Virus record (IMG/VR): IMGVR_UViG_3300034093_001553
Coordinates: 1-51,554 of that record
Length of the DNA stretch: 51,554 nt
From: a virus
Reading direction: 5' to 3' (one strand)
Below are positions 20,793-44,473 of the stretch, piece by piece; position 1 is the first letter of the stretch; every line of letters begins with the position of its first letter. The position numbers and the translations under genes are program-made. The notes below the pieces were generated by a model that saw nothing but the letters and a program-made list of their open reading frames with translations, was not told where the DNA came from and made no database searches.

Positions 20793-20794
20793 GA

Positions 20795-27415: not shown

Positions 27416-28234
27416 TTATTTTACTCTGTATTTTTTAAAATTATCAAAATTTAAAGTTAATATGCTCAAAATACCTATTATTATTCCCGGAATATCAATT
27501 TCCCACCACTTGTTACCCATATACCAAGAATTTGGAATCTTATGATGATTTTGGTGCCAGCCGTCAAACGCAAAATATCCCCAGAATAAGTTATTATTAG
27601 ATTCGTCGTTGAGCTGTACTGTTCTATAATTTCCTAAATTGTCATGCGGACCGTGAAGTTTAGAATTTAAATAGTTTTTTATTAAAACAACAAGGGCTAT
27701 CCCTGGCATCCAAATTGTCAAAAACCATTCTACAGAAGTTAACATAATTATAAGAAACCATGTACTAACAATTATAAAAAGACCACATTTACTAAAAAAT
27801 ATTTGAACCTTGTCATTGAGCAAGTCATACGCATATTTTAAACTAAAATTATGATAAGGGTACAGAAATTGTATCTTCCATCTATTTAAATATAATGGAG
27901 AATGTGGGTCTAATTCAGTGTCCGCAAATTTATGATGCAATCTATGTTGTGCAGAGAATACAATAGAATTGCCTAATAGACTTTGATTAGCAATCCATAG
28001 TCCTATTATGTCAAGCCATTTCGGTGCGTTCCACGCTTTATGAGCAAATCTTCTATGATGAAATATTTGTTCTGCACACCCTACTAGATAATATACACTA
28101 AAAATTTTCCAGTATTCTGTCCAAGGTAGAGTTATAAGAGCGTATACTAAACAAATATAGGAGAATATAGATGCAATTAATACTATAGGTCTATGAAAAT
28201 TTATGAAATTTTCAATTTTTTTAAATTGGTTCAT
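27416..28234 (-). CDS. membrane fatty-acid desaturase 9 of 9
   Basis: Last gene of the operon (numbered in order of transcription), 272 aa. It has the three histidine boxes of acyl-CoA/acyl-ACP Delta9-type desaturases: HRRFAH (60-65, preceded by an extra His59), HRLHH (97-101) and HQNHH (227-231), with FADTELDPHSP after box 2 and KWWEIDIPG after box 3, and four membrane segments. The family binds two irons and inserts double bonds (or acetylenic bonds) with O2 and electrons from a ferredoxin-type donor. It starts on the last base of the aminotransferase stop. It lacks the GEG usually found before box 3 (FDG here). Confidence 0.9.
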   Translation of the reverse strand: MNQFKKIENFINFHRPIVLIASIFSYICLVYALITLPWTEYWKIFSVYYLVGCAEQIFHHRRFAHKAWNAPKWLDIIGLWIANQSLLGNSIVFSAQHRLHHKFADTELDPHSPLYLNRWKIQFLYPYHNFSLKYAYDLLNDKVQIFFSKCGLFIIVSTWFLIIMLTSVEWFLTIWMPGIALVVLIKNYLNSKLHGPHDNLGNYRTVQLNDESNNNLFWGYFAFDGWHQNHHKIPNSWYMGNKWWEIDIPGIIIGILSILTLNFDNFKKYRVK

Positions 28235-29055
28235 TATAGGAAATTAGTAATACAAATTCTATTTACATTACCTTTCTTAAAGAAGTTGTATATCGGGTCA
28301 GAAGTAGTAGCCAAATAAATTACATCAGACGGAGTTAGTCCATGTGTTTTACAAAATAATTCCTGTTGATGTTTATGTTTTTTATGTAGATAATCTAAAC
28401 TGAAACTTTTAAATAATTCCATTGTTAATTTTAAATTATTGCTATTAAAATAAAAGTTTCTTAACAAACCCCCTAGTGGTATAGACGGCGTTCTTCTAAA
28501 AACATAACCAATCCTAAGTTCCGATAATCCAAACATTTTGCTTAAACCAACATATACTGAATTAATATTTTCATTTACTTCTATTTTTTCTACATGGCAT
28601 GATCCTATGTATGCACAGTCTAATGCAATGTCTTGATGAGTGTTTATTATTTCATTCCAATTGCTGATATAATTTCCATCTATGCTGCTTGGGTTTGACA
28701 CATATAAGATATCCCCATCATTATAATTTACATTTTTAGGTAGATTTAATTGTAACCAATCGTATTCGCCTTCGAATACTTTTATTGACTTATTTCTGCA
28801 CTCCACTGCTAGAGTAGTTAATCCCTCAGTAATTCCGTTAATTGGATACATAAAAGGAAACTCTGTTAAGTCTATTATCGGGGACATATACTTAACTATT
28901 AATTCTTTTGTGTTTCTAAGTAGTTGTTGTTTAGTGTCTATATTTTCCTCAGCAGAATAATTTTTTAAAATAAATTCTTGTGCAAACTGTTTTATATCCT
29001 CATCGAGATATGCTGTTATTTTTCTGCTTTTAGGTAATTGATCAATTAGTGTCAT
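28234..29055 (-). CDS. PLP-dependent class I/II aminotransferase-like, short
   Basis: A 273-aa fold-type-I PLP enzyme. It has NGITEGL (73-79), NPSSIDG (121-127), DCAY (146-149) and the PLP lysine Lys173 in GLSKMFGLSELRIGY, with the conserved Arg181. The catalytic core is therefore intact, but the protein is about 100 residues shorter than typical class I/II enzymes and has a reduced C-terminal small domain. In this operon it could put an amino group on the product or condense an acyl thioester with an amino acid. It overlaps its neighbours by ATGA and by one base, between desaturases 8 and 9. Confidence 0.82.
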   Translation of the reverse strand: MTLIDQLPKSRKITAYLDEDIKQFAQEFILKNYSAEENIDTKQQLLRNTKELIVKYMSPIIDLTEFPFMYPINGITEGLTTLAVECRNKSIKVFEGEYDWLQLNLPKNVNYNDGDILYVSNPSSIDGNYISNWNEIINTHQDIALDCAYIGSCHVEKIEVNENINSVYVGLSKMFGLSELRIGYVFRRTPSIPLGGLLRNFYFNSNNLKLTMELFKSFSLDYLHKKHKHQQELFCKTHGLTPSDVIYLATTSDPIYNFFKKGNVNRICITNFL

Positions 29056-29777
29056 TTAGCTAATCTTAAAAATTTGCATAAGGGTTTTAAAAATTTTCCA
29101 GGATCAGAATCGCTATTTTTCCAAGGGTGGTCATGATGATTTTTATGATAGTCTGCTAGAGAAAACCATGCCCATATAAAGTTATTATAAGGCCTTTTCT
29201 TTATAGGGTCATGTTCAAGGATTGAATTAGAAGTTTGTTCAATGACAAATATTAATCCTGATGCCATAATTAATCCCAGTGCTACGTCTATTGAAATTAA
29301 AGATATAGCTAGTATTGTACCCCATATTATGTAAGTCTTATTTCTATATAGAAAATAAAAAAATCTATAATCATCTTCTGGATAGTCTTTAATTAACGAT
29401 CGATATTTAAGCATAGTGTTATCTACGTTATATACCCACCCCATAAAACATCGAATTACTCCATTAGCCGGACCAAAATAATCTTTTTCTGTATCAGAAT
29501 AGCGGTGATGATATCTATGGCTTAGTGTCCATCCTAATATATCTCCTCTAAGAGCAAATAGGAATATAAATCCAATAACGTTTTCTCCAAGTTTTGTGAA
29601 GTTAAGTTGTTTATGGACTATTCCTCTATGAGCTAGATTAAATGCAAATAGATAGCTTAGAATGTAAAAAAATATACATGACGCAATAGTTAGTTGCGAA
29701 ATATCTACAAATATGGGAGACAATATTGTTATTAGCAATATTGGGACTATAACCAAGAACTTATATAAGTTCCCCAT
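29052..29777 (-). CDS. membrane fatty-acid desaturase 8 of 9
   Basis: 241 aa, with histidine boxes HRGIVH (50-55), HRYHH (87-91) and HKNHH (211-215). The usual DPHSP after box 2 is changed to DYFGP, and ADY replaces GEG before box 3, so it is the most divergent of the nine and may do something other than simple desaturation. Four membrane segments are visible. It starts one base after the ACP stop and overlaps the aminotransferase gene by ATGA. Confidence 0.85.
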   Translation of the reverse strand: MGNLYKFLVIVPILLITILSPIFVDISQLTIASCIFFYILSYLFAFNLAHRGIVHKQLNFTKLGENVIGFIFLFALRGDILGWTLSHRYHHRYSDTEKDYFGPANGVIRCFMGWVYNVDNTMLKYRSLIKDYPEDDYRFFYFLYRNKTYIIWGTILAISLISIDVALGLIMASGLIFVIEQTSNSILEHDPIKKRPYNNFIWAWFSLADYHKNHHDHPWKNSDSDPGKFLKPLCKFLRLAK

Positions 29778-29778
29778 T

Positions 29779-30021
29779 TTATTTTTTTATTAATTCGGAG
29801 ACAGCTTCAGCTAACCCGCCTAGAGTTCTAACTCCGTCTAATCTATCTTCCGGGATAAGAATTTTAAATTCATCCTCAATGAGCATTACTATTTCCATTG
29901 CGTCTAAACTATCTCCGCCGAGGTCGTCTATAATATGAGTGGTTCCGCTCATTTCAATTTTTGATTTCTTGAAATGTTTTTTGGCAATGCCAACTACTTT
30001 ATTTAAAATTTCTGTTTCCAT
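29779..30021 (-). CDS. acyl carrier protein
   Basis: The 80-aa protein is a typical ACP: acidic, four helices, and the phosphopantetheine attachment serine Ser38 in DLGGDSLDAMEIVMLIED. Such a domain carries growing or modified acyl chains as thioesters. It is encoded inside the desaturase operon and overlaps desaturase 7 by 23 bp, which suggests that the desaturases and ketosynthase act on chains bound to this ACP. A holo-ACP synthase gene is at 40304-40600. Confidence 0.95.
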   Translation of the reverse strand: METEILNKVVGIAKKHFKKSKIEMSGTTHIIDDLGGDSLDAMEIVMLIEDEFKILIPEDRLDGVRTLGGLAEAVSELIKK

Positions 30022-30787
30022 GTCTAATATCCTTTGAAATAAGTTTTCCTAATAATCCTTCTAAATCTAATTCCCACCATTTGTTGGTTAAAATTAGCTT
30101 TGCAGGATCTGCATGATGATTATTATGCCACCCAAATCCTAGAGTAATAATACCTAATACTATATTATTTTGACTAGATTCGTCTGTGTCGTAATTCCTG
30201 TAATTTCCTGGAAAGTTATTCAAATGTAAAATACTATTTACAGTTCCTAACCTTACATGCTCGATGATATATGCAATCAGGTATCCATATAGTATATCTA
30301 AATTTATTAGATAAAGCAACCCCATAAAGATTAAATTTATAAAGATGAAATGTTTGGTTGTAAAATTAATTGCATTATCTTTTGATGCTTTGGCAAAATT
30401 AACTATACTGGCTCGATCTTCAAAAATGCTTTCTATTCTTTTTTTATTTAAACTCCAGAAATAGAATGCTTGTAAGAAACCATTTTTAGGACTATGTATG
30501 TCTCCGGCAGTATCAGTGTGCCTGTGGTGGTGCCTGTGTTGTACCTGCCAATATACAGTACTACTATATGCGCTAATGGTTGTCCAAAATGCTAAGATCC
30601 AGTGTACAGGTCTACTTACGCTGAATTGATTATGTGCAAAGTATCTATGGCCTGCCGTGCCATTTCCGAATGCAATTAACAACCACATTAAAAATATGAA
30701 TAGTTTTTCTTCTATTAAAAATGCCGACACTACTCCTAATATAGTAAGTGTTACATTAAAAACGATATATTGTAGAGTCTTTTCCAT
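29999..30787 (-). CDS. membrane fatty-acid desaturase 7 of 9
   Basis: 262 aa, with boxes HRYFAH (47-52), HRHHH (84-88; extra His) and HNNHH (221-225), TDTAGDIHSP after box 2 and NKWWELDLEG after box 3. Box 1 also lies in a GHRYFAH context typical of acyl desaturases. It overlaps desaturase 6 by 32 bp and the ACP gene by 23 bp. Confidence 0.92.
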   Translation of the reverse strand: MEKTLQYIVFNVTLTILGVVSAFLIEEKLFIFLMWLLIAFGNGTAGHRYFAHNQFSVSRPVHWILAFWTTISAYSSTVYWQVQHRHHHRHTDTAGDIHSPKNGFLQAFYFWSLNKKRIESIFEDRASIVNFAKASKDNAINFTTKHFIFINLIFMGLLYLINLDILYGYLIAYIIEHVRLGTVNSILHLNNFPGNYRNYDTDESSQNNIVLGIITLGFGWHNNHHADPAKLILTNKWWELDLEGLLGKLISKDIRHGNRNFK

Positions 30788-31568
30788 CTTTAACTATAAA
30801 AAATTTATCAACAAACCATGCACATATATCAAATTCACCTTTATTAAAGGCTTGATTATACTTGGTAGGATCGTGATGATGATTGTTATGATACCCTTCT
30901 CCCAGGCTTCCCCAAGCCATAAAATGATTGTTGTGACTGTTATCGGGAGTATTGTAAGTCCTATAACTTCCAGGAATTTTTAAATGGTCCAATCCTACAA
31001 CTGCTAAATTTGCCGCAAGGTGATAATGGCCGGCAGGTAATAAAAAGCCGAATAAAAATAACTTCCAATCTATTAGAAGTGTTACAATTGCAATAACATA
31101 CCAAAATTTAAAATAATGGCGTTCAATGAATATCAGCGTAGGATCCTTCATTAAATCCTTAACACGGAATTCAACACCTTTTTTTGCAAACCATTTATAT
31201 CCTCTAAATTCCCACGCACCTGTAATAGTATGCCAGAAACTAGTAACTGGGCTATGTGTATCTTTTTCAGTATCTGCAAACAAGTGATGATGCCGATGGT
31301 TCATTGCATAAACTATAGGACTCTTGGATGCTAACAAAATTGTCCAGTAAGAAAGCAGTTTATGTTTAAACAGTGTTGTCTGAAAACTTCTGTGAGTAAA
31401 ATATCTATGAAAGGCAATATTGTTTCCAATTACTTTATTAAATTGTGCTATAAAATATGAAACCCAAAATAATGTCCAATCGTTTATTGATATGCAATAC
31501 CATATGCTAAATGGAATACTCAACCAAGCGGCTGAAAGTAATATTCTATGTTTCCATTCTGTTTTCAT
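30756..31568 (-). CDS. membrane fatty-acid desaturase 6 of 9
   Basis: 270 aa, with boxes HRYFTH (54-59), HRHHH (91-95) and HNNHH (227-231) in GEGYHNNHH, and ADTEKDTHSP after box 2. Four to five membrane segments. ATGA overlap with desaturase 5. All residues expected for di-iron binding are present, so it should be active. Confidence 0.92.
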   Translation of the reverse strand: MKTEWKHRILLSAAWLSIPFSIWYCISINDWTLFWVSYFIAQFNKVIGNNIAFHRYFTHRSFQTTLFKHKLLSYWTILLASKSPIVYAMNHRHHHLFADTEKDTHSPVTSFWHTITGAWEFRGYKWFAKKGVEFRVKDLMKDPTLIFIERHYFKFWYVIAIVTLLIDWKLFLFGFLLPAGHYHLAANLAVVGLDHLKIPGSYRTYNTPDNSHNNHFMAWGSLGEGYHNNHHHDPTKYNQAFNKGEFDICAWFVDKFFIVKDGKDSTIYRF

Positions 31569-32299
31569 TTTTTTAGAAGTTTAATAATTTGGTAAGATGG
31601 ATCAACTTCAGTCCATTTGTTTTTAAGATTTGCATTGCCTGGATTTATATGATGATTCTTATGGAGGGTACTTCCTCCGGATAAAAATGCCAACCACGTT
31701 ATATTTATAGCAGTATATTCTCCATCTACTTTTTTATGTAGCAGTGAATTAATTAACATCTCTGAATGGAATGTTAAGATCATAGCAGCCAACAACGACA
31801 TTCCAATAGATGGACTGATAAGAAATACCAATACTAATGATGCAAGTACAAAGTGTTTACATAGTTTTTCTATCTTGATTAATTGAGTATCTTTTAAGTA
31901 ATCTCTTATAACAAAAACAGGAACATCCATGGGTTTCAATAACCATCCAAAATATGAAACATAAAATCCCTTACTGGGAGAGTGTGGGTCTAGTGTAGTG
32001 TCACTGTGAGCATGATGGTATCTGTGTATCCTAGACCAAGTAATAGGACCACCCATTAACCCAAAACATCCTATTACTGCCAATGCATACTTTATGTATC
32101 TGTTCTTTGGTTCCCAAGTCTTGTGTGAAAACAGTTTGTGAAATCCTGCTTGTATGCCTGCCCAATATATTAGTATATAGAATATTAAAAAATAAAAAAT
32201 ATTAATACCAATAAAAGGCAATAGTATTAAAAATAAAATCTGTAATGGAAGATTGAATTTAAGATAATATGATCTAGATACATCTGCTAAAGAGTTCAT
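31565..32299 (-). CDS. membrane fatty-acid desaturase 5 of 9 (variant box 1)
   Basis: 244 aa, with boxes HKLFSH (54-59), HRYHH (92-96) and HKNHH (213-217). The usual Arg of box 1 is Lys, and GGSTLHKNHH replaces GEGxHNNHH, so it belongs to a divergent subgroup with desaturase 8 (both HKNHH). The histidine ligands are all kept. ATGA overlaps on both sides. Confidence 0.88.
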   Translation of the reverse strand: MNSLADVSRSYYLKFNLPLQILFLILLPFIGINIFYFLIFYILIYWAGIQAGFHKLFSHKTWEPKNRYIKYALAVIGCFGLMGGPITWSRIHRYHHAHSDTTLDPHSPSKGFYVSYFGWLLKPMDVPVFVIRDYLKDTQLIKIEKLCKHFVLASLVLVFLISPSIGMSLLAAMILTFHSEMLINSLLHKKVDGEYTAINITWLAFLSGGSTLHKNHHINPGNANLKNKWTEVDPSYQIIKLLKK

Positions 32300-33063
32300 T
32301 TTAAAAACTTGTTAATTATTACGGCACTCATATCCCATTCTTTCGGTTGTTTAGTAAATGCAAAATTATATTCTCCAGGTTTAGCATGATGATTGTTATG
32401 CAACCCTTCTCCTAATGTTAACCAGTTCCAGAAATGACTGTTGACAGTTTCATCATCGGTATTAAAATTTCTGTATCCTTGGCTTGGCAAGTGCAGGGGT
32501 AGACTTAATACAGCAGAGCTCCACCAACTAAATCCAGCAGGTATCATATAACAGAACAGAACAAGGTTAATATCAATTGCGGCAAGTATCAATACATATG
32601 ACAATATAACCAACAAATAATATTTGTGCAACTTAATTAGAAAAGGATTCTTAAGCAGGTCTTTAATCATGCCTAACGGTACTACCTTTGTAGGATCATC
32701 TTTATACCAGTGCCAAAAACTTCTCCAATATCCTATTTCGTGAGGACTGTGTAAATCTTTGCCTCTGTCACTGTTAAGATGATGGTACCTATGTACTGAG
32801 ACATATTGTAAGGTTGTTCCTGTAGTACTTAATGTAGCTAACACTGCTACAATCTTTTCTTTCCACGGTTGCATTTTAAAACTTCTATGTGTGAAATATC
32901 TATGTTGTCCAATGCTTGCTCCTACTTTGCTAATCAACAATACTGCAAACACTAAAGATAGATAGTATTCCATACTTGCAAGATATGTAAGGTATATCAA
33001 ACCAGGTAAAATAGCAAATGTGTTAATCTGCTGTAATGTTCTTAGTATTATTATATTATTCAT
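32296..33063 (-). CDS. membrane fatty-acid desaturase 4 of 9
   Basis: 255 aa, with boxes HRYFTH (54-59), HRYHH (91-95) and HNNHH (222-226) in GEGLHNNHH, and SDRGKDLHSP after box 2. Closely follows the classical acyl desaturase pattern. ATGA overlaps on both sides. Confidence 0.92.
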   Translation of the reverse strand: MNNIIILRTLQQINTFAILPGLIYLTYLASMEYYLSLVFAVLLISKVGASIGQHRYFTHRSFKMQPWKEKIVAVLATLSTTGTTLQYVSVHRYHHLNSDRGKDLHSPHEIGYWRSFWHWYKDDPTKVVPLGMIKDLLKNPFLIKLHKYYLLVILSYVLILAAIDINLVLFCYMIPAGFSWWSSAVLSLPLHLPSQGYRNFNTDDETVNSHFWNWLTLGEGLHNNHHAKPGEYNFAFTKQPKEWDMSAVIINKFLK

Positions 33064-33821
33064 GATTTTTTCATAAAAAGTTTTTCAATAATTATTGCAG
33101 GAAAGTCAAATTGACCTTTCTCTGTTACATATGAGTAGGACCCTGCATTAGCATGATGCTGGTTATGATAACCTTCATTCCATGTAAACCACTTTAAGAA
33201 TGTATTGTTGCTACTTTTATCATTAGTATTAAACGGTCGTGTACCGTATTCGGGGCGATGCCCTAGTACATTTACTAAACCGGCAGCTATAAAATTATGT
33301 ATAATCATGTAACTTATTAACCATCCAGTTAGTGCAGGTCCTAGGATAACTAATGATAATACAAGCAATACCGTGTTTATTTTAAAATAATATTTATGTA
33401 TCCATCTATGCACCGGATCTCTAATTAAATCTGACACAAATTTATTCTCAATAGAGTATTTTTCATTTCTGACATAGAATACTACTTTCCACCAAGGACT
33501 TGTTATATGGGGATCTCGCTCAGTATCACTGTATGCATGATGTTGTCTGTGAACTCCGGCGTAGGTTATACTAGTACCGTATAGTAAAGGTGTAGCAAAC
33601 GCATGTAACACATACTCTTTCCATCGTTCAGTCTTATAACTCTTATGGCACCATAGTCGATGCAGTGCTACTTCGTTGCCCACTGCGTTAAAGATTTTTG
33701 CAATGATCATACCTAGTACTAACATAGGAAAACTAAAATTGGTGATGAGAGTAAACAATAATATAGTAAAATGAATGCCAAGCAATAGCATCAGTTTATG
33801 GTGAAAGGTTAATTTTATCAT
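33060..33821 (-). CDS. membrane fatty-acid desaturase 3 of 9
   Basis: 253 aa, with boxes HRLWCH (54-59), HRQHH (91-95) and HNQHH (219-223). It is a close paralogue of desaturase 2 (35626-36429): they share YGTSITYAGVHRQHHAYSD, ERDPHIT-PWWKVVFYVRNE and VNVLGHRPEYG, and their DNA is similar in long stretches. The two copies flank the ferritin-like genes. ATGA overlaps with both neighbours. Confidence 0.92.
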   Translation of the reverse strand: MIKLTFHHKLMLLLGIHFTILLFTLITNFSFPMLVLGMIIAKIFNAVGNEVALHRLWCHKSYKTERWKEYVLHAFATPLLYGTSITYAGVHRQHHAYSDTERDPHITSPWWKVVFYVRNEKYSIENKFVSDLIRDPVHRWIHKYYFKINTVLLVLSLVILGPALTGWLISYMIIHNFIAAGLVNVLGHRPEYGTRPFNTNDKSSNNTFLKWFTWNEGYHNQHHANAGSYSYVTEKGQFDFPAIIIEKLFMKKS

Positions 33822-34699
33822 AGATAGCTCTCGTAGTTAATTAAAAGGTCATTGTTTTTTAAAAATGATTCTAAATCGTGATCTTGAAAAAGATAATAAA
33901 ATTTTCCAAAGTCGAATAACTCCTTAACTGTAGAAATGGTATAATCTTTTGCCCGCTTGCTGTGTTTCATATCTTCGAAGTGGTCTAAGAAATTTATTCC
34001 ATAAGATTGCATAATTTTTTGATATTGGTGTGCAGTATGTACTCCAACTCCATTTTTCAGAATTTGTTTTATTCTTAATAATAAGATTTTTGTTATTTTG
34101 TCTTTGTTATCTAAATTAAAAATAATCTTCTTACCTAAATTTATATGGTTAGATTCGTCTGTAGCAACTTTTGTTAAACATTGGTTTACCAACGGATTCA
34201 TTGACATTCGAGCCTGAAGTCTCATATCGCCAATGATTAATGTTTCATTTATAAAATGTTTAAAAATTTGAAAATCTAAGTTATCTTCATAAAAATGAGA
34301 CCAGAACTCTTTACTCATTAGTTGATTTTTACGTTCAATGTATTCTTTTTTTATATCCTTTTCCGGAAATAACAGTATTAATAAATTTAAATAAATTAAA
34401 GAATGTTTGTATTCATCATTGGCTATTTTTAAAAAAATAAATTTTCTATCTACTTCATTGCTCTGAGCATACCACTGATATAACCATTCTACTGATTTTT
34501 CTTCTGTTAAGCAGGTTATTATAAAATCTTCAAATACTATATCTTTTTCAATTTTTAATTTTATTTGAGACGGTATGTTACAATTTTCTAAGAAACTGTA
34601 ATTATTATGACCTAAGATATCTTCATCATTAGCTGTATTTTCTTCTAATGATTCTCCTAATAAGGTTTCTAATGTTGGCAATCTGTCCAAATTTATCAT
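33818..34699 (-). CDS. ferritin-like diiron protein B
   Basis: A 293-aa soluble, all-helical protein with a complete diiron carboxylate set: Glu66/67, ExxH at 96-99 (DEYKH), Glu152 (NETLIIGD) and ExxH at 182-185 (DESNH). This E...ExxH...E...ExxH order is shared by ferritin-like oxygenases such as AurF-type N-oxygenases and soluble acyl-ACP desaturases. It is a paralogue of protein A next to it (similar N-terminal GHNNYSFLENCNI/GLNHYSYFENLNL). It may act on the ACP-bound chain or on the amine made by the aminotransferase; which is unknown. Confidence 0.75.
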   Translation of the reverse strand: MINLDRLPTLETLLGESLEENTANDEDILGHNNYSFLENCNIPSQIKLKIEKDIVFEDFIITCLTEEKSVEWLYQWYAQSNEVDRKFIFLKIANDEYKHSLIYLNLLILLFPEKDIKKEYIERKNQLMSKEFWSHFYEDNLDFQIFKHFINETLIIGDMRLQARMSMNPLVNQCLTKVATDESNHINLGKKIIFNLDNKDKITKILLLRIKQILKNGVGVHTAHQYQKIMQSYGINFLDHFEDMKHSKRAKDYTISTVKELFDFGKFYYLFQDHDLESFLKNNDLLINYESYL

Positions 34700-34708
34700 A
34701 TGGTCCTG

Positions 34709-35626
34709 TTATGTTTCATTAGTTTGTCGTTCATTTTTTAATGCATGGTACTGGTCTAACACACCTGCATTTTTTAATGTTGTTTCAAAATCACTGTCTA
34801 CTATTCCAAATATCTGACCATACTTATAGTACATTGGAACCATTGTCAATATAAAATCTTTATTTCGGTTACTACCTTTTATGTTTTCTATCACATTATT
34901 GTAGTTAAGATTGTATTGTTGACAATACTGTTTAACGTAGTGCAAAAGAAAACTAGGATAGAACTTTGAAAACAATGCCTGAAAACTTGTATAAAGTGTA
35001 TCCTTATACATAGATTTATAGCGTTCAATTTTTCCTTCTCCGATAAAAATAGTACCGTATTGTAAGTGTTCTATTTCATCAGATACAATAGATTCTAGAA
35101 CTTTCTTCAAAGGTTCTAAGGTCGTGTTTTGTTTAATCTGCTCAACATACGCTAACACTTCGATTTCTTTAATTGTGTACCCAAATAAAGACGAAGATAA
35201 TGTTTCATTCTGATATTCAAATTTTCTTAGATTATCGTAGCTATTTTTAAAAGATAAAAATTCTTTATTCAATGTTTCACTATCAAATAATTGATTGATG
35301 ATACTAACTAATAACGAAAAATGCTCTTGTTCTTCATACGCTTCTTTAAGGAAGAATAATCTCTTAACAGGATCTGTAGTTAGTTTATAGAGCTCAGTTA
35401 GCCAAAATGCAGCATTTTCTTCCTTCCATGCCATCATTATAAGTGAATTTGTATCAACAAATGCAGATATTTTTTCTTTATCTTCCGTGCTTAAATTTAA
35501 ATTTTCAAAATAAGAATAATGATTTAATCCTAGTGGGTTGGCGCTGTTTTTATCAATAAAGCATTTAGGTAAATTAAAATTTGTATCTAGACTTAAATCA
35601 CAACATGTAGGTAATGTGCTTGCCAT
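34709..35626 (-). CDS. ferritin-like diiron protein A
   Basis: A 305-aa all-helical protein with diiron ligands Glu69/70, ExxH at 99-102 (EEQEH), Glu154 or Glu156 and ExxH at 184-187 (DEIEH). Same family as protein B, from which it has diverged strongly. It starts on the last base of the desaturase 2 stop and lies nine bases before the start of protein B. Substrate unknown. Confidence 0.75.
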   Translation of the reverse strand: MASTLPTCCDLSLDTNFNLPKCFIDKNSANPLGLNHYSYFENLNLSTEDKEKISAFVDTNSLIMMAWKEENAAFWLTELYKLTTDPVKRLFFLKEAYEEQEHFSLLVSIINQLFDSETLNKEFLSFKNSYDNLRKFEYQNETLSSSLFGYTIKEIEVLAYVEQIKQNTTLEPLKKVLESIVSDEIEHLQYGTIFIGEGKIERYKSMYKDTLYTSFQALFSKFYPSFLLHYVKQYCQQYNLNYNNVIENIKGSNRNKDFILTMVPMYYKYGQIFGIVDSDFETTLKNAGVLDQYHALKNERQTNET

Positions 35627-36429
35627 TATTTAGAACTCCAAATGAATTTTGCAATTTTCTTTTGTTCTTTTTTCATAAACAGTAGATAGATTATCCATGC
35701 ACCAACATCTAAGTTAGTTTTCTTTGTCATAAATGTCCACGAATTGGGGTTTGCATGATGATGATTATGTAATCCCTCATTGAGGCTGAATAGTTGTACT
35801 ATCCAATTATTTGCACTCTGGTCATCAGTTGCAAACGGACGTGATCCGTATTCAGGACGATGTCCTAATACATTTAGTACACCGGCAGCAATAAAACTAT
35901 GAATGACTATGTAACTTAATATCCATCCAGTCCATACCGGACCTAGTGTCAGCAAGAAAGTTATTAATAAGATACTGTTAATTTTCCAATAGTTTTTATG
36001 TATCCATCTATGTACGGGGTCCCTAACTAAATCTTTAACAAACTTAGATTCAATTTCGTAATCCTCATTTCTGACATAGAATACCACTTTCCACCAAGGT
36101 CTTGTTATATGGGGGTCACGTTCGGTATCACTGTATGCATGATGTTGCCTATGAACCCCGGCGTAGGTTATACTAGTGCCGTATAACAAGGGCGTTGAGA
36201 ATACGTGCAATACATATTCTTTCCATCGGTCTGTTTGATAAGACCTATGAGCCCATAATCGATGTAATCCAGCTTCATTGCCTATCAAATGCCAAATCTT
36301 ATGTACTAAAAACATTGTTAAAAAAACAGTCCAATCCCAATGAAATACTAATACCCACGCATAGAGTAACAGGTGTATGCTTAGTAGTAGCATTAATTTG
36401 TTATGAAAAGTTAATTTTTGTGTGAACAT
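35626..36429 (-). CDS. membrane fatty-acid desaturase 2 of 9
   Basis: 267 aa, with boxes HRLWAH (56-61), HRQHH (93-97) and HNHHH (221-225). It is the close paralogue of desaturase 3. A basic C-terminal extension (KKEQKKIAKFIWSSK) is missing from desaturase 3. It begins 11 bases after the ketosynthase stop. Confidence 0.92.
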   Translation of the reverse strand: MFTQKLTFHNKLMLLLSIHLLLYAWVLVFHWDWTVFLTMFLVHKIWHLIGNEAGLHRLWAHRSYQTDRWKEYVLHVFSTPLLYGTSITYAGVHRQHHAYSDTERDPHITRPWWKVVFYVRNEDYEIESKFVKDLVRDPVHRWIHKNYWKINSILLITFLLTLGPVWTGWILSYIVIHSFIAAGVLNVLGHRPEYGSRPFATDDQSANNWIVQLFSLNEGLHNHHHANPNSWTFMTKKTNLDVGAWIIYLLFMKKEQKKIAKFIWSSK

Positions 36430-36440
36430 TGAAATATGCT

Positions 36441-37601
36441 TTATGTTTTATCTACTCTGATTCCACCACTGACACCGCCAAAACCAAAACTTAATTTTGC
36501 AAAATTTAATGTTTCTTTATAAATTGGATTCTTTAACACAATGGTATGCTTACAATCGACTGTGTCGTCGGTGCCAGAAGTATACGGAATCCAACCTTGA
36601 TTTAACCCTGCTAACGAATACGCTAGTTCAATTCCGGCGGAACTAGACATAGTATGTCCCACGGATCCCTTTAATCCATAAATGTATGTTTCATAGGGTA
36701 GGGAATCTAGAGCTAATATCTCTGCTTCATCGCCTACTTTAGTTGCAGTAACGTGACAGTTGATTGAATCAAGTTTAATATTATTATTATCTGTAATTTC
36801 GTTTAGCAAGAACTTCCCTGCAGAACCGTCCGGGCTAGGTGCAGTTAAATTATAGTAATCGTTGTATAAACTAATTTTTCCAATAGTCCCAAGATTTTTT
36901 CTAACATTATTTTCTTTGGTTAAAATATAACAAGCAACTCCTTCACCTAATGCCATTCCGGATCTGTCAACATCAAATGGCTTTACTGAGTCCTTGGTAC
37001 ATACTCCCATGCTATTAAAGATGTAGGTAGTGTATGGGTGTGTTGCACAGTCGACACCAAATACTAACACCGCCTCACATTGATTTGAATTTAAAAACTT
37101 TTCAGCAATATCAAATGCCGTTATAAACGCACTACATGCTTGATTGATCATAAAACTAGGACCTGTTAGTCCAAGATGCCTACTTACAGTTGTGCAGATA
37201 GAACTTTGTGTCACTGTTGCCCCCCAACGAGGACTAATCATTCTTTTCTCTGCAAATAGTGCTTTCCAAACCATGCCGCCTGTTTCTTGAGACCCTTGCA
37301 AGGTTACTCCTATTACAGGTGTATTTTTTGGTAAGTCCATCCCTTCCGCACATCTTCCCGCGGCCAGTACAGCTAACTTAATTGCCCGTGGCATATTAGA
37401 TTCTAGATAATTTAATTTTTCTAATTCTAAATCTAAGTCATCATCCGTTAATGGAATATCAAATTTAGGAAGTCCTGTTAAAGGTGCATTTTCGTGCCTT
37501 GTAAAATTAGCAGAATTACCTTTTAGATAATTTTCAATGCAATTACTATAACTAGTTCCATTAGCATCTAAGAGTTCAACATTGTTAATTACAGTTTTCA
37601 T
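36441..37601 (-). CDS. beta-ketoacyl-ACP synthase (KAS II/chain-length-factor like)
   Basis: A 386-aa thiolase-fold ketosynthase. The nucleophile Cys156 lies in INQACSAFI; His283 and His316 complete the triad, in CHVTATKVGDEAE and KGSVGHTMSSSAG (Lys311 also conserved). FGFGG is near the C terminus. The usual HGTGT is HVTAT, so the second histidine loop is atypical but the catalytic His is kept. KS enzymes extend or initiate ACP-bound chains by decarboxylative condensation. As the only KS in the operon it probably starts or extends the chain; whether malonyl-ACP comes from the host is unknown. It overlaps desaturase 1 by ATGA. Confidence 0.92.
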   Translation of the reverse strand: MKTVINNVELLDANGTSYSNCIENYLKGNSANFTRHENAPLTGLPKFDIPLTDDDLDLELEKLNYLESNMPRAIKLAVLAAGRCAEGMDLPKNTPVIGVTLQGSQETGGMVWKALFAEKRMISPRWGATVTQSSICTTVSRHLGLTGPSFMINQACSAFITAFDIAEKFLNSNQCEAVLVFGVDCATHPYTTYIFNSMGVCTKDSVKPFDVDRSGMALGEGVACYILTKENNVRKNLGTIGKISLYNDYYNLTAPSPDGSAGKFLLNEITDNNNIKLDSINCHVTATKVGDEAEILALDSLPYETYIYGLKGSVGHTMSSSAGIELAYSLAGLNQGWIPYTSGTDDTVDCKHTIVLKNPIYKETLNFAKLSFGFGGVSGGIRVDKT

Positions 37602-38365
37602 TTTTTAACTAATTTAATAAATTGAGCAGGTAGATCAATTTCCCACCACTTTTCGCCTTGTTTCCATCGATAAGGTCTAGCATGATGATTATTATGCCAC
37701 CCTTCTCCTAGACTCATTATATTTGCAATCCAACTATTTTTTGCAGTGTCGTTAGTTTCATGATTTGTATATCCATGTATGTGTCCAATGACAGTTACTG
37801 CTGATACTCCATTAAGACAACCAGTAGCCGGCATAGCGTATGCAAAAATTACCAACCAGGGATTAATCAACATTAACAGTATAACATATACAAATATAAT
37901 TGTAAAGTAGTTTCTATGTAAAAATACAATTAGTGGGTCTTGTACCACATCTCGGATTAGTTTTTTACTAATGTCAGCCCTATTCCAGTCATAGATATAT
38001 GCCTTCCACCATCCTATGTGTCTAGGAGAATGTGGATCTTTATCAGTATCGGCATGTAGGTGATGGTATCTATGTAGTGCTACCCAACTAATGATAGACC
38101 CTAATGTAGCAAGTGTTCCGGTTATTGCTAATAATATTTCTACCGGTCTAGAAGTCTTATAAGTCCGATGACTAAAGTATCTATGATACCCAGCGTTTGC
38201 TCCGATAACTCCAAAAATTAAAAACGATACGATAAATGTGGAAAAATAACCTACACTAAAATCAACAACGAGGTAACAAATGCCTATGATAGATAACAAG
38301 ATGTTAACTAACTGTAGAGATTTAATTTGTGTGTTGAAATTTTGTTTTAGGAAAAAAGAAAACAT
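37598..38365 (-). CDS. membrane fatty-acid desaturase 1 of 9
   Basis: First gene of the operon. 255 aa, with boxes HRYFSH (61-66), HRYHH (98-102) and HNNHH (224-228) in GEGWHNNHHARP, ADTDKDPHSP after box 2 and KWWEIDLP after box 3, four to five membrane segments. The most canonical of the nine, close in pattern to Delta9 acyl desaturases of cyanobacteria and proteobacteria. The ATG is preceded by a GTGCTA/TAGCAC hairpin and late-type boxes. Confidence 0.92.
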   Translation of the reverse strand: MFSFFLKQNFNTQIKSLQLVNILLSIIGICYLVVDFSVGYFSTFIVSFLIFGVIGANAGYHRYFSHRTYKTSRPVEILLAITGTLATLGSIISWVALHRYHHLHADTDKDPHSPRHIGWWKAYIYDWNRADISKKLIRDVVQDPLIVFLHRNYFTIIFVYVILLMLINPWLVIFAYAMPATGCLNGVSAVTVIGHIHGYTNHETNDTAKNSWIANIMSLGEGWHNNHHARPYRWKQGEKWWEIDLPAQFIKLVKK

Positions 38366-38389: not shown

Positions 38390-38397
38390 GTATTTAT
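38390..38397 (-). promoter_or_regulatory. late-type box CATAAATA before desaturase operon
   Basis: CATAAATA (7 of 8 to the T4 late box) on the minus strand, about 25 bases before the ATG of desaturase 1. A TATAAT lies a little downstream without a good -35. Confidence 0.4.
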
Positions 38398-38416
38398 GTA
38401 AAATTTTTAATGAAGT

Positions 38417-39408: not shown

Positions 39409-39768
39409 TTACAAATTGATATTTTTAATAATTCCTTCGGTAATGGGATCATTGTTGGGGTTATAATGTACAAATTTTGTTGATTCTCTGACAATACCCG
39501 AAACTTCGTTATAGGTTTTATTTACGGTGTAATTGTTAATAACATGCTCATCTTCTGAAACGATTCTTAGAAGTCCTGGTAAAGAATCCCAAATGTATGT
39601 AACAGTCCTAGTTAACTGGTCCGCACTAAACTCTGTGGTTGGTGTCAATAAAAAATTTGTATCTATATATGAAGATTTTATGTGCTCTGAATATTCAGAA
39701 GGTTTTTCCCAAAAAGCTACAGATGTATTAGGCCTGTGCTCTATTGTTTGCATCTTTATTGACATCAT
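39409..39768 (-). CDS. unknown protein, paralogue 1 of a 119-aa pair
   Basis: Shares with its upstream neighbour (39765-40124) the motifs RPNTSVAFWEKP/RPNVDVPFWDRS and LTRTVTYIWDSLPGLLRIVSED/LTRLRVHWWNAIPGLIETLAED, and exactly equal length. Function unknown. The two genes overlap by ATGA. The pair looks like a tandem duplication that has diverged. Confidence 0.7.
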   Translation of the reverse strand: MMSIKMQTIEHRPNTSVAFWEKPSEYSEHIKSSYIDTNFLLTPTTEFSADQLTRTVTYIWDSLPGLLRIVSEDEHVINNYTVNKTYNEVSGIVRESTKFVHYNPNNDPITEGIIKNINL

Positions 39769-40124
39769 TCGACTCCTGGAAAGGTTCCTTCTGATATATT
39801 TATTCCGTCACTGTCGTACGTTATAAAATATAATAGTCCCTTTTCTATTCCTAATGACTCATTGTATTCTTTATTTTTTCTCAGAATATCTTTTAGATTA
39901 AGATCTTCCGCTAATGTTTCTATTAATCCAGGAATTGCATTCCACCAATGGACTCTTAATCTAGTTAATCCGTCTTCGGATACAGTTAAACTCTCTGATT
40001 CTAATAGGCCTGTAGTCTTATATGTTTCTGTGTAATAATCTTCATCTACTAGTGATCTATCCCAAAAAGGTACATCTACATTTGGCCTAGTTTCTTCCCG
40101 CCACATTTTTATTTTTATTGTCAT
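39765..40124 (-). CDS. unknown protein, paralogue 2 of a 119-aa pair
   Basis: Second member of the pair with a 40-residue stretch of recognisable similarity to the downstream copy. It has a good AGGAAG ribosome binding site. No motif suggests an enzyme; both may be small beta-rich binding proteins. Confidence 0.7.
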   Translation of the reverse strand: MTIKIKMWREETRPNVDVPFWDRSLVDEDYYTETYKTTGLLESESLTVSEDGLTRLRVHWWNAIPGLIETLAEDLNLKDILRKNKEYNESLGIEKGLLYFITYDSDGINISEGTFPGVE

Positions 40125-40303: not shown

Positions 40304-40600
40304 TTATTTATTTAAAAATGCCACTGCAAATACATATTCTCTTTCATGACTTATACTCACTGCTAGTTTATCATTTCCTAATACATAAGGTTTTCCAGAA
40401 TTGTCAGTTAAAATGCTGATATTGACTGCCCCTGCTGCTTTAAAAATTGCTTCTTTAGCGGCCCATCTTCCTGATAGATATTCTAGCTTATTTGTTTTTT
40501 TAGAATATTCTTCTAGTTCTAACGGTGTAAGTACTTTTAACGCCCACCTTTCTAACTTTTTTGAAAATCTATTAATTTTAACTACGTCACATCCTATCAT
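40304..40600 (-). CDS. acpS: holo-ACP synthase (4'-phosphopantetheinyl transferase)
   Basis: The 98-aa protein is a compact AcpS: MIGCDVVKINRF (Asp5 as the metal ligand), LTPLELEEY, and SGRWAAKEAIFKA (Glu50 and Lys54), then SISHE near the end. It transfers phosphopantetheine from CoA to the serine of apo-ACP. It is shorter than host AcpS (about 120 aa). Its presence lets the phage activate its own ACP (29779-30021). It overlaps the upstream GNAT-like gene by ATGA. Confidence 0.9.
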   Translation of the reverse strand: MIGCDVVKINRFSKKLERWALKVLTPLELEEYSKKTNKLEYLSGRWAAKEAIFKAAGAVNISILTDNSGKPYVLGNDKLAVSISHEREYVFAVAFLNK

Positions 40601-41181
40601 ATTAATTTCCTAAATTCATTTTTACAACACGCATGTGTTATCACTAATGAATATTTGCTCTTATTTGCAATCGACGACATAAGAGATTGATAAATTTCAT
40701 ATTTTGAATTACCAAACGGTTCTATAATTTCTGCAGGATGAAAATGATATCTGTCAAATATGAGTTCTTGTGATAATAATCTGTTTCTAGAAAGATTTAC
40801 TGGAACATGTCTGGATACGTAATAGAAGTCGTAAGCGTTTTGTTCTTCTGCTATCAGCATCATTTTATTCATAATCATACTATAACTTCTAGAAATTTTT
40901 CTGTTTTGTGTTAAATCATACGATGTATAAGAAATTGGTATAGACCAAAATGGAATCTTTGCCCAAAAATACATTATACCAAAACCTATAAATTTATTAT
41001 CTATATGATGTCCTATGATTTTCCCGGGAAACTTTCCTGATAACACCTCATCAATTTTTGAAATGTGCATATCCATAATTCCAGAGGATCTGATATCGAT
41101 ACCGTATAGATCCGTATTGTACTGTATTACATTTACAATGTTTTCTCGGTCTTGTTGATCACATACATAAATTTCTTCCAT
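40597..41181 (-). CDS. GNAT-like acyltransferase, 194 aa
   Basis: The order of a strand (NKFIGFGIMYFWAK), helix and YDFYYVSRHVP resembles GNAT N-acyltransferases, and it seems distantly related to the plus-strand 194-aa protein at 42180 (YYYIRALDK; both end in a FxxKxI tail). If it is a GNAT it could release the chain from ACP onto an amine. Weak similarity only. Confidence 0.5.
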   Translation of the reverse strand: MEEIYVCDQQDRENIVNVIQYNTDLYGIDIRSSGIMDMHISKIDEVLSGKFPGKIIGHHIDNKFIGFGIMYFWAKIPFWSIPISYTSYDLTQNRKISRSYSMIMNKMMLIAEEQNAYDFYYVSRHVPVNLSRNRLLSQELIFDRYHFHPAEIIEPFGNSKYEIYQSLMSSIANKSKYSLVITHACCKNEFRKLI

Positions 41182-41226: not shown

Positions 41227-42183
41227 ATGAAACCATACACATTGGATAATAATTTAGTCTACGGATATAATGATGGTATCTTTAATCCTAACGATAAAAC
41301 TAAGATTGACTCTTTACAATGTTCTTATGCTAGGGTACAAAGACTTCCGGGAACGTTTCAGGAAGAATGCCATAAAGTTGCAAAAATATTATCTGTAGAA
41401 TCTCAGAAATTAACTAGAATTCCTATGGTGTTCCTTAGCGGAGGGTATGATAGTGAAGTAGTAGCTAAATCATTTATAGAAACTAATTTAGATTTTCAAC
41501 CTATTACTTTTCGATTTAAGAATAACCTTAATCGTCACGAGATGTACTACATAGATAAATTCTCTAAACGTCATAATCTCAATGTTATGTATATTGATAT
41601 GGACATACAAGAATGGATGTCGAGCACCGAGGCGCTTGAGATGTTTAACGTTAGTCATTGTCATTTTCCAGAATTGCTACCTCACATGAAACTAATGGAC
41701 ATTGTATGGAATAATTGCAAAGGTCTTCCTATATTAGGAAACGGTGATTTATATGTATCAAGAGAAATTAATCCTATTTGGAGATTACATGATAGTAGTG
41801 CTGAAAAATATGTGTGGAACTATTTAGAATATGAATACATCTTAGCATGGTTTAGGTTTGCTGTTGCAAAACAAATTTTAGGAGGGATAGGGTTTTTCCA
41901 ACATACACCCGAAATTACTCTTAGTATGATTTTAGAACCTGAGATACAAAATGTGTGCAATAATAATAATCGACATAGAATGAGTTCTAGGTCTACAAAA
42001 TATCTCATTTATAAAAAATACTGGCCTGATTTAGAAGATAGAATTAAGTATGACGGCGGCGAACTTTCTCGAGGATTATATTATAAATTTATGTTTGATC
42101 ATACACTGTCTAGGATGATTCCATATTTGGATGTCTGGAGAGAATCATTTACGCAATTTCAAAATAGGTTAATGCCATTATGA
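41227..42183 (+). CDS. asparagine-synthetase-like PP-loop ATPase
   Basis: The 318-aa protein has the PP-loop SGGYDS (71-76) after the strand IPMVFL, and further elements of the asparagine synthase / N-type ATP pyrophosphatase family (adenylation of a carboxylate or similar). The glutamine-hydrolysing N-terminal domain of AsnB is missing. It could activate an acid for amide formation. Plus strand, with no strong ribosome binding site, next to GNAT-like genes. Confidence 0.8.
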   Translation: MKPYTLDNNLVYGYNDGIFNPNDKTKIDSLQCSYARVQRLPGTFQEECHKVAKILSVESQKLTRIPMVFLSGGYDSEVVAKSFIETNLDFQPITFRFKNNLNRHEMYYIDKFSKRHNLNVMYIDMDIQEWMSSTEALEMFNVSHCHFPELLPHMKLMDIVWNNCKGLPILGNGDLYVSREINPIWRLHDSSAEKYVWNYLEYEYILAWFRFAVAKQILGGIGFFQHTPEITLSMILEPEIQNVCNNNNRHRMSSRSTKYLIYKKYWPDLEDRIKYDGGELSRGLYYKFMFDHTLSRMIPYLDVWRESFTQFQNRLMPL

Positions 42184-42764
42184 CTATTAGATCACTAGTA
42201 TCCGCTGATAGCGACAGTATCTTTAAATTATTACACAATCAGAATACTGTTATGGATCAAGAAATTGACAAAGAATCTAGGCATATATTAGATATGAAGA
42301 TTTTTAATTATACTCAGTGGATAGATGACCCTTACACTAAGACCTTAGTATATGAAGATGATGGCATTGTACATGCTGCTATATTTGCACATTTTAACTT
42401 TTATATCAATGCATGGAAGATTGAATTAATTTTATCTGATTTAAAGAATTTTTCAGGTGGTAAGATTACTTCTATGTTAATATCTGAAATGATTGATTAT
42501 GCAGAATCTAGAGGTTTTTATCAGTATTATTATATTAGAGCACTTGATAAATTAATGATGGATAAAAGTTGGGATAAAAAAGATAGCAATAACTTTCTAT
42601 GGTCTAGATATCAAAAAGGTATTGATGAATGTGTAAAAGCATATTCTAGACCCGTTACTGGTGTATACTGGGACTGGTTATTCAATAATAGATGTAAATC
42701 TAATGATACAGTAGTTGTACATAGATTTCTACCTGCCAAATATAGAAAAATTATATTAGAGTAA
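42180..42764 (+). CDS. GNAT-like acyltransferase, 194 aa (plus strand)
   Basis: Follows the PP-loop gene by an ATGA overlap, so the two are co-translated. It has GNAT-like strands and helices (LVYEDDGIVHAAIFAHFNF; FYQYYYIRALDK) and equal length to the 40597 protein. Its end overlaps the minus-strand neighbour tail to tail by nine bases. Function inferred weakly. Confidence 0.55.
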   Translation: MTIRSLVSADSDSIFKLLHNQNTVMDQEIDKESRHILDMKIFNYTQWIDDPYTKTLVYEDDGIVHAAIFAHFNFYINAWKIELILSDLKNFSGGKITSMLISEMIDYAESRGFYQYYYIRALDKLMMDKSWDKKDSNNFLWSRYQKGIDECVKAYSRPVTGVYWDWLFNNRCKSNDTVVVHRFLPAKYRKIILE

Positions 42765-43292
42765 TCCGTCTGCTAGATACGATTCTTTATTCAATTCTAA
42801 CACCCATTGATGGGTATAATATATTTCCTTCATTCCTAATGGTTCTAGATGCTTGATAAGAGATACGTGATCCCATCTTTTTCTAGACAATGCTTTGTAC
42901 CATGTATAGTTATAATGATTAATAGTTATCCACTGATGCTTATATTCCCAAGATTCTTTAATACATATGGGAAGAATGTTTTTTGAAATAATAGTGTGAT
43001 GTCTATGCTGTGGCAATACGTAAAATCGTGTACCTAATAATACAGTATCATTGTAATAAGGATTCCAGCCAGCACTACCAATATATTTTCCATCTTCAGT
43101 TATAACAAAATAACCTCCAGTTTTATACCTACCCTCTTTAAGGATGTAAAATAAATTTGAATTAGATGATGCATAATCAGGATGATAATTTTTAATAATA
43201 TCTTTGTTATCTTCCATCATGCTGAGACCATTTTTTAAAATCTCCATAACATCATAGTTAGTATCATCTGTAATCTTGTGAATTTCTCTCAT
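42756..43292 (-). CDS. GNAT-like acetyltransferase, 178 aa
   Basis: GGYFVITEDGKYIGSAGWNPY and RFYVLPQHRHHTIIS fit the beta3-beta4 strands and the acetyl-CoA pyrophosphate-binding region of GNAT enzymes, and ITINHYNYTWYKALSRK fits their beta5-alpha5 segment. Target unknown. It overlaps the upstream iron-oxygenase-like gene by ATGA. Confidence 0.6.
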   Translation of the reverse strand: MREIHKITDDTNYDVMEILKNGLSMMEDNKDIIKNYHPDYASSNSNLFYILKEGRYKTGGYFVITEDGKYIGSAGWNPYYNDTVLLGTRFYVLPQHRHHTIISKNILPICIKESWEYKHQWITINHYNYTWYKALSRKRWDHVSLIKHLEPLGMKEIYYTHQWVLELNKESYLADGLL

Positions 43293-43843
43293 AGTACTTT
43301 GATTAAAAATTCTGGAATTTTTTTAAATAATGATATACTTAAACATATTCTTTTTCTAGTTATTCCTTCAACGCTGTGAAAACATTGATTATTCATAAGT
43401 ATCCATTCGTGTTTTTTAAATTCAAAAACATCTATAGGTTCTGCTAAATCTCTTTCTAATCTGTTACCTGGAATAATTATTTTGCTTTTTAATTCATCGG
43501 TTGTTTTATAAAATGTAGTTGTTACGCAATCCCCGCCAGTGTCTAATACATACATTAGATTATAATTTCTCGGTACACCCCTAAATGAAGGACCGTCAAT
43601 ATGAGGTTCGAACGTACCTTGGCTAACAGTCTGAATAGCACAATTGTCTATTGATTTATCAATAGATTCCTTGGCCCACCGCAGATAAAAAATTTCAGAA
43701 AATGATTTCTTCATTTCAAAAAGTCCCATCCCAGATCTATATTCTAAAAAGTTTTCTGAATTGTTTTTCACTACCGTTAATATATTTTGTTCAATATCGT
43801 CGGGCAATTTACAAAATGGTAAATTTGTTTTAGCAGTAAACAT
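43289..43843 (-). CDS. 2-oxoglutarate/Fe(II) oxygenase-like protein 1
   Basis: 184 aa with a cupin-type iron facial triad: His81 and Asp83 (EPHIDG), His156 (NQCFHSVEG), and Arg165 (RKRICLSI) for 2-oxoglutarate. The order HxD...H...R with about 70 residues between is that of asparaginyl/prolyl hydroxylase-like dioxygenases. Substrate unknown. It shares an ATGA junction with the GNAT-like gene. Confidence 0.75.
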   Translation of the reverse strand: MFTAKTNLPFCKLPDDIEQNILTVVKNNSENFLEYRSGMGLFEMKKSFSEIFYLRWAKESIDKSIDNCAIQTVSQGTFEPHIDGPSFRGVPRNYNLMYVLDTGGDCVTTTFYKTTDELKSKIIIPGNRLERDLAEPIDVFEFKKHEWILMNNQCFHSVEGITRKRICLSISLFKKIPEFLIKVL

Positions 43844-43880
43844 AATTTATATTACTTGTAACTTCAATTTGCTGGTATCC

Positions 43881-44417: not shown

Positions 44418-44473
44418 GTTTTACCAGTTTTTAATTGTTGGAATTTTTTGTCTATATTTGTTTCATAACAGAA

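What the first reader, a model, noticed from the sequence alone, without database searches (positions are those of the whole stretch)
27416..38365. Phage operon with nine fatty-acid desaturases, ACP, ketosynthase, two diiron proteins and an aminotransferase
Seen: 14 minus-strand genes with 1-4 bp overlaps or very short gaps; each of nine membrane proteins has all three histidine boxes (HxxxxH, HRxHH, HxxHH), yet they differ widely from each other. The operon also has an ACP with DSL serine, a KS with Cys-His-His, two ExxH/ExxH diiron proteins and a PLP enzyme. Known: several desaturases plus ACP and KS occur together in bacterial polyyne and polyunsaturated lipid pathways. Inferred: the phage makes a highly desaturated ACP-bound chain (polyene, polyyne or similar) during infection, perhaps as a toxin against competitors, a membrane modifier or a signal. 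I know of no described phage system like this. No acyl-AMP ligase, thioesterase or rubredoxin was seen.
Basis: partly seen in the sequence, partly recalled or inferred. Interest (0 to 1): 0.97.

Follow-up and report, generated by a model that had tools for sequence, protein, structure and literature searches.

The report
Phage gene cluster of many desaturases
Several otherwise unrelated phages carry the same movable set of genes, with seven to eleven fatty-acid desaturases plus their own acyl carrier protein, its activating enzyme and a ketosynthase, which looks like a dedicated pathway for a highly unsaturated fatty molecule of unknown identity, probably made late in infection.

Summary
Window 27416-38365 (minus strand) carries 14 tightly packed genes: nine SCD-type membrane desaturases, an acyl carrier protein (ACP), a ketosynthase (KS), two ferritin-like diiron proteins and a small PLP enzyme. 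All nine desaturases keep nine metal-ligand-type histidines and are under strong purifying selection. It is not a chimera: two other viral contigs with otherwise unrelated backbones carry it, with ligase, KS, seven desaturases and ACP in the same order. Smaller ACP/PPTase/desaturase islands occur in further viral contigs; a desaturase-PLP pair occurs in Pelagibacter phage Mosig and relatives. The island is AT-richer than its surroundings, and T4-type late-promoter-like motifs precede its operons. Best reading: a mobile phage biosynthetic cluster that builds a multiply desaturated ACP-bound chain and probably couples it to an amine. It fails the definition of a bacterial polyyne cluster (no acyl-AMP ligase; no rubredoxin in the window). 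Product, host and benefit are unknown; polyene, polyyne and membrane-lipid roles stay open.

The parts
37598..38365 (-). Desaturase D1 (SCD/DesA type), first gene of the tight operon; orthologues in G001 and G002
36441..37601 (-). FabF-like ketosynthase, Cys156-His283-His316; orthologues 99% (G001) and 72% (G002)
35626..36429 (-). Desaturase D2; orthologues in G001 and G002
34709..35626 (-). Ferritin-like diiron protein A; orthologue 88% in G002, none in G001
33818..34699 (-). Ferritin-like diiron protein B; distant relatives in G002, none in G001
33060..33821 (-). Desaturase D3; orthologues in G001 and G002
32296..33063 (-). Desaturase D4; orthologues in G001 and G002
31565..32299 (-). Desaturase D5; orthologues in G001 and G002
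30756..31568 (-). Desaturase D6, the most conserved; orthologues 98% (G001) and 87% (G002)
29999..30787 (-). Desaturase D7; orthologues in G001 and G002
29779..30021 (-). Acyl carrier protein with DSL serine (Ser38)
29052..29777 (-). Desaturase D8, overlapping the start of the PLP gene; orthologue in G001 only
28234..29055 (-). Small PLP enzyme of HisC/aminotransferase I-II type, Lys173; homologues in Pelagibacter phage Mosig and relatives, beside a desaturase gene in Mosig and six more contigs
27416..28234 (-). Desaturase D9, diverged; orthologue in G001 only
38391..38398 (-). CATAAATA, T4-type late-promoter-like motif 33 nt before D1; AATAAATA at 26 and 32 nt before D1 in G001 and G002
   Evidence: motif definition PMC2984593
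38420..39352 (-). RimK/LysX-like ATP-grasp ligase, just upstream of D1 in all three contigs
39409..40124 (-). Two 119-aa proteins of unknown function (39409-39768, 39765-40124) between ligase and PPTase; two orthologues in G002, one distant relative in G001
40304..40600 (-).
40597..41181 (-). GNAT-fold acyltransferase, no Pfam match by sequence
41227..42183 (+). PP-loop (N-type) ATP pyrophosphatase-like protein
   Evidence: weak matches; SGG.DS motif
42180..42764 (+). Second GNAT-like protein, related to the first by alignment only
42756..43292 (-). GNAT acetyltransferase (Pfam Acetyltransf_1)
43289..45135 (.). Three small proteins (43289-43843 -, 43881-44417 -, 44416-45135 +) that I read by eye as possible 2OG/Fe oxygenases; no Pfam match; the first and third have 84-89% orthologues in G002
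   Evidence: family assignment is inference

Best explanation
A mobile biosynthetic cassette of phages that makes a multiply desaturated acyl product. The phage AcpS-type PPTase turns the phage ACP into its holo form. The FabF-like KS takes a host fatty-acid intermediate and loads or extends it on that ACP. At least seven conserved, non-interchangeable SCD-type diiron membrane desaturases (nine here) then oxidise the ACP-bound chain step by step to a polyene, polyyne or mixed chain. Optional tailoring enzymes (ferritin-like diiron proteins in the window and G002, a Rieske protein in G001, the PLP enzyme with D8/D9) modify it. The ATP-grasp ligase and the GNATs release it by amide formation with an amine or amino acid. 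Expression comes late in infection from T4-type late-promoter-like sites. Shown: gene content, conservation, order, selection, intact catalytic residues and the promoter-like motif. Inferred: the ACP as carrier during desaturation, the order of steps, the amide release, the late timing and any benefit to the phage. Unknown: chain length, bond type, electron donor, host.
For: Orthologous islands sit in two other viral contigs whose backbones share almost nothing with the window. Ligase-D1-KS-D2-D3-D4-D5-D6-D7-ACP runs in the same order in all three, and the desaturases fall into one-to-one orthologous groups. All desaturases keep their histidine boxes and show dN/dS 0.02-0.11 (window-G001); KS 0.02, ACP 0.06, PPTase (window-G002) 0.10. 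ACP and a PPTase are encoded with the KS in all three contigs, and PPTase, ACP, desaturases and PP-loop recur in further contigs. SCD assignment E 4e-34, KS FabF-like E 6e-21, ATP-grasp LysX-like E 5e-7, GNAT fold. NATAAATA stands within 80 nt upstream of 12 of 25 island transcription units, against a shuffle mean of 2.0 and maximum of 6 in 500, and before D1 in all three contigs. In G001 a rubrerythrin and a rubredoxin gene follow the operon; rubredoxin is a standard gene of polyyne clusters.
Against: No enzyme for free fatty acid activation (AMP-binding) was found in any of the three records, and no thioesterase was identified, so loading and release are guesses. No ferredoxin or reductase was recognised in the window island. 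Membrane desaturases of this fold can also act on CoA- or lipid-bound chains, or hydroxylate or epoxidise. In pelagiphage-like contigs the desaturase-PLP pair occurs without a detected KS or ACP, so that pair may do something else. The unit starts in the motif test were my own choice, and no T4-type major capsid gene (gp23) was found in the three records, so T4-type late transcription is not established.
Confidence: 0.55

Rival explanations
1. Membrane-lipid remodelling: the desaturases act on phospholipid- or CoA-bound chains of the host to change its membrane during infection, and KS, ACP and PPTase supply unusual chains for membranes.
For: Single phage desaturases are described and interpreted this way (PMC7678222; Roitman 2018 cited in PMC11480375). 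fabF and stearoyl-CoA desaturase were filed under lipid biosynthesis in freshwater pelagimyophages. The desaturases are SCD-like, a family best known for CoA- or lipid-bound substrates (general knowledge).
Against: Seven to eleven diverged desaturases, seven of them in fixed order, with a private ACP, PPTase, ligase and GNATs exceed what fluidity control needs; a few suffice in cyanobacteria (general knowledge).
Confidence: 0.22
2. Modification of a phage macromolecule: the acyl chain is made on the ACP and the ligase or GNATs attach it to a virion protein, a surface glycan or a nucleic acid, so that the product is a modified particle and not a free metabolite.
For: RimK/LysX-type ligases act on protein or carrier-protein ends (general knowledge). 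Late-promoter-like motifs would time the island with virion genes. Two small unknown proteins sit between ligase and PPTase. The PLP enzyme's homologue in phage Mosig lies in an island next to tail-fibre genes.
Against: No target protein or site was identified; membrane desaturation of the chain before attachment would be unusual; the 119-aa proteins keep no common C-terminus (the G001 relative ends differently).
Confidence: 0.12
3. Assembly chimera or decaying bacterial passenger DNA without function in the phage.
For: The island differs in G+C from its surroundings (32-33% against 38-41%); the window is a linear fragment.
Against: The same island lies in two other viral contigs with different flanks; all genes are open and under purifying selection.
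Confidence: 0.02

Closest known systems
Bacterial alkyne/polyyne clusters (jamABC; caryoynencin, collimonin, cepacin, protegencin)
   Same: Several membrane desaturases encoded with a stand-alone ACP; rubredoxin beside the G001 copy
   Different: No acyl-AMP ligase and no identified thioesterase; has its own KS, AcpS-type PPTase, ATP-grasp ligase, GNATs and ferritin-like diiron proteins; 7-11 desaturases instead of three; phage-borne
Single phage acyl desaturases (cyanophage lipid desaturases; Lake Baikal Nitrospirota viruses)
   Same: SCD/DesA-type desaturase carried by an aquatic phage
   Different: One desaturase seen as membrane tuning; no operon of many desaturases with ACP, KS and PPTase reported in the passages read
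Freshwater pelagimyophages of group PMP-D (fonsimyophages)
   Same: fabF and stearoyl-CoA desaturase genes plus a 2OG-Fe dioxygenase reported (PMC7029224)
   Different: Only a one-line mention; number of desaturases, ACP and PPTase not stated; sequences could not be compared here, so it may or may not be the same island
Pelagibacter phage Mosig desaturase-PLP pair
   Same: Homologous PLP enzyme (38-39% identity) overlapped by a desaturase gene
   Different: One short desaturase; no KS or ACP found around it; other neighbours (MoaA-like, carbamoyltransferase, TauD-like)
Type II PUFA/aryl-polyene/fatty-acid synthesis ketosynthases
   Same: KS is FabF-like with an intact triad
   Different: No chain-length factor, ketoreductase or dehydratase genes; unsaturation would come from desaturases, not from the synthase

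Membership tests
Bacterial polyyne biosynthetic cluster | Fatty acyl-AMP ligase (JamA) | tested here: not met
   No PF00501 match in the window record, G001 or G002; the records may be fragments. Definition from PMC8406139
Bacterial polyyne biosynthetic cluster | Stand-alone acyl carrier protein | tested here: met
   PF00550 in all three records
Bacterial polyyne biosynthetic cluster | At least three fatty acid desaturases | tested here: met
   Nine here, eleven in G001, seven in G002; orthology to the polyyne desaturases themselves was not tested
Bacterial polyyne biosynthetic cluster | Rubredoxin | tested here: not met
   None in the window or G002; one beside the cluster in G001
Bacterial polyyne biosynthetic cluster | Thioesterase | not tested
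   No thioesterase among the annotated island genes, but no dedicated thioesterase search was run
SCD/DesA-type membrane desaturase | Three histidine boxes plus the extra His, nine His ligands in all | tested here: met
   Nine invariant histidines in all nine window proteins; SCD1 E 4e-34
SCD/DesA-type membrane desaturase | Desaturase activity and substrate carrier | not testable with these tools
   Needs biochemistry
Beta-ketoacyl-ACP synthase (FabF type) | Cys-His-His triad and KS domains | tested here: met
   Pfam ketoacyl-synt N and C; FabF 4r8e E 6e-21; C156/H283/H316
AcpS-type phosphopantetheinyl transferase | ACPS domain with N-terminal IG.D and WA.KEA motifs | tested here: met
   PF01648 E 2e-12; TIGR00556 above cut-off; TIGR00516 AcpS below its cut-off; motifs kept in three contigs
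Aldehyde-deformylating oxygenase | Significant sequence or fold match | tested here: inconclusive
   Best fold neighbours of diiron A, but E 5e-3 and model pLDDT 69.5; no sequence match
HisC-like aminotransferase | Full-length domain and PLP lysine | tested here: inconclusive
   Lysine and its motif present, but only the central part matches and the protein has 273 aa against about 350

The most novel reading that the evidence does not exclude
Phages carry a horizontally exchanged, late-expressed gene cluster that makes a previously unknown small molecule (a poly-desaturated, possibly polyyne, acyl amide) by a carrier-protein pathway found so far only in viruses, released at lysis to act on competitors or neighbouring cells.
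Probability: 0.25. Interest if true: 0.97.

Novelty: new variant of a known kind. Interest (0 to 1): 0.86.

Why it matters
Phage metabolic genes are usually one or a few host-derived genes that tune host metabolism. A conserved island with a private ACP, PPTase and KS and seven to eleven non-redundant desaturases, exchanged between unrelated phages, would mean that phages run specialised-metabolite pathways of their own. PHROGs holds no family matching its KS, PPTase, PLP enzyme, diiron protein, ligase, GNAT or PP-loop protein. The order-conserved desaturases would also be a compact enzyme set for poly-desaturated chains, and expression with mass spectrometry could test this directly.

Tried and rejected
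KS, desaturase D6, ATP-grasp ligase and a D6 DNA motif as bait in viral contigs returned only the same two contigs; the diiron protein as a single-sequence bait found nothing, although G002 holds an 88% orthologue, so these pattern scans miss relatives. TAL-effector matches of the PLP profile are repeat artefacts. PDB sequence search gave no usable relative for the diiron proteins. Aldehyde-deformylating activity was considered because of the best fold neighbours but the match is weak. A LysW-like carrier role for the 119-aa proteins was considered: one ends in Glu in the window and G002 but its G001 relative does not. A T4 gp23 search and a terminase search to place the backbones were negative. 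Two scripts read a wrong window record and were replaced. Literature searches found no description of such a phage operon, but subscription papers are not held.
Full report
OBSERVATION. Gaps and overlaps run from -32 to +11 bp inside 27416-38365. Pfam FA_desaturase finds eight of nine, seven above the cut-off; the ninth (27416-28234) matches NCBIfam DesA. Together they hit stearoyl-CoA desaturase at E 4e-34. Nine histidines are invariant across all nine, as expected for the SCD metal ligands (ligand count from general knowledge), while pairs share 26-37% identity except D2/D3 at 64%. Catalytic residues of ACP, KS and PLP enzyme are present. This is far beyond chance.

Upstream of D1 lies a RimK/LysX-like ATP-grasp ligase (38420-39352). 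Then come two 119-aa proteins, an AcpS-type PPTase (40304-40600), a GNAT-fold protein, a PP-loop-like protein (41227-42183) and two further GNAT-like proteins. Three small proteins up to 45135 look to me like 2OG oxygenases but match no Pfam family.

NOT A CHIMERA, AND MOBILE. Two other IMG/VR contigs hold the island: G001 (3300013006_001903, 52.6 kb) and G002 (3300027712_001262, 112.9 kb). Outside the island the three contigs share very little. The window flanks carry a phage tail fibre, a phage-type DNA polymerase fragment, GroES-like and ClpP-type genes and 13 tRNAs. G002 carries tail fibres, ribonucleotide reductase and about two dozen tRNA genes. G001 is the least clearly phage by its genes (tRNAs, glycosyltransferase); that it is viral rests mainly on IMG/VR. 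Ligase, D1, KS, D2, D3, D4, D5, D6, D7 and ACP keep one order in all three. G001 adds two desaturases and a Rieske protein and lacks the diiron proteins. G002 lacks D8, PLP and D9 and has an extra, truncated diiron gene. Identities are mosaic. Window-G001 is 84-99% in the operon but 23-54% in PPTase, GNAT and PP-loop; window-G002 is 52-87% for desaturases but 85-90% for PPTase, GNAT and PP-loop. The island has 32-34% G+C; the rest has 36-41%.

SELECTION. dN/dS between window and G001 is 0.02-0.11 for all nine desaturases, 0.02 for KS, 0.06 for ACP and 0.10 for PLP; diiron A and PPTase (window-G002) are 0.13 and 0.10. Every desaturase is being kept.

WIDER FAMILY. AcpS as bait gave further viral contigs. 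G003-G006 combine PPTase and ACP with one to three desaturases and no KS. In the two read in detail (L117, L119) there are also GNATs and a PP-loop protein, plus proteins that I read by eye as Rieske-like and radical-SAM-like. In L117 the order desaturase-GNAT-desaturase-Rieske-like-PP-loop recalls the second module of G001. The PLP enzyme as bait gave nine contigs beyond G001; in six of them, as in Pelagibacter phage Mosig, one short desaturase gene overlaps the PLP start. In the tree, phage desaturases stand largely apart from 55 bacterial ones; the orthologous groups are well supported, the deep branching is not, and long branches are a warning.

EXPRESSION. T4-like cyanophages use NATAAATA as late promoter (PMC2984593). 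This motif stands 26-33 nt before D1 in all three contigs and within 80 nt of 12 of 25 island unit starts (shuffles: mean 2.0, maximum 6 of 500). It also precedes a tail-fibre gene in G002 and in Mosig. T4 gp23 was not found in the three records, so the late reading rests on the motif alone.

MECHANISM. See Best explanation. Loading is the weakest step: no acyl-AMP ligase is present, so I infer that the KS takes chains from host fatty-acid synthesis. Electron donors are unknown; G001 has rubrerythrin and rubredoxin genes right behind D9, and G002 has a ferredoxin-oxidoreductase-like gene elsewhere. The diiron A model resembles aldehyde-deformylating oxygenases, but weakly.

COMPARISON AND NOVELTY. 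The polyyne-cluster definition (seven genes, PMC8406139) is not met, so I do not file it there; it may still work in a similar way. Precedents in phages are single desaturases and a one-line mention of fabF with stearoyl-CoA desaturase in freshwater pelagimyophages, which might be the same island seen in passing; I could not compare sequences. In the phage reference collection only distant ketosynthases and three records with distant desaturases appear, and no relative of the diiron, first GNAT or PP-loop proteins. I call it a new variant of a known kind (a phage-carried biosynthetic cluster), with an appreciable chance that the pathway is of a new kind.

Noticed in passing
G001 contig about 520-1117 (L009:18433-18894 and just beyond): Rubrerythrin gene followed by a separate 45-aa rubredoxin frame, directly behind the orthologue of D9.
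   Followed up: partly
L017:15143-17074 (G002 34142-36073): A DnaK-like protein of 643 aa in G002, up to 69% identical to records in the phage collection (some probably bacterial contamination) and about 55% to 635-642 kb uncultured phages.
   Followed up: partly
L015:5575-21610 (Pelagibacter phage Mosig): Island annotated with MoaA-like enzymes, carbamoyltransferase, nitroreductases, taurine dioxygenase, GNAT, hydroxylases, desaturase and PLP enzyme next to tail-fibre genes: another unexplained biosynthetic or modification cluster.
   Followed up: no
G009 (contig of L124, 141.7 kb): Five scattered desaturase genes and an AcpS-like gene but no ACP or KS match; two genes are 74-78% identical to window backbone genes.
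   Followed up: partly
window 45655-51317; G002 21-254 and 17733-22000: tRNA genes lie beside the island in the window and on both sides of it in G002, which suggests a tRNA-rich insertion hot spot.
   Followed up: partly
window 23172-25761: Genes that read by eye as GTP cyclohydrolase I, UDP-glucose epimerase and UDP-glucose dehydrogenase just outside the island.
   Followed up: no
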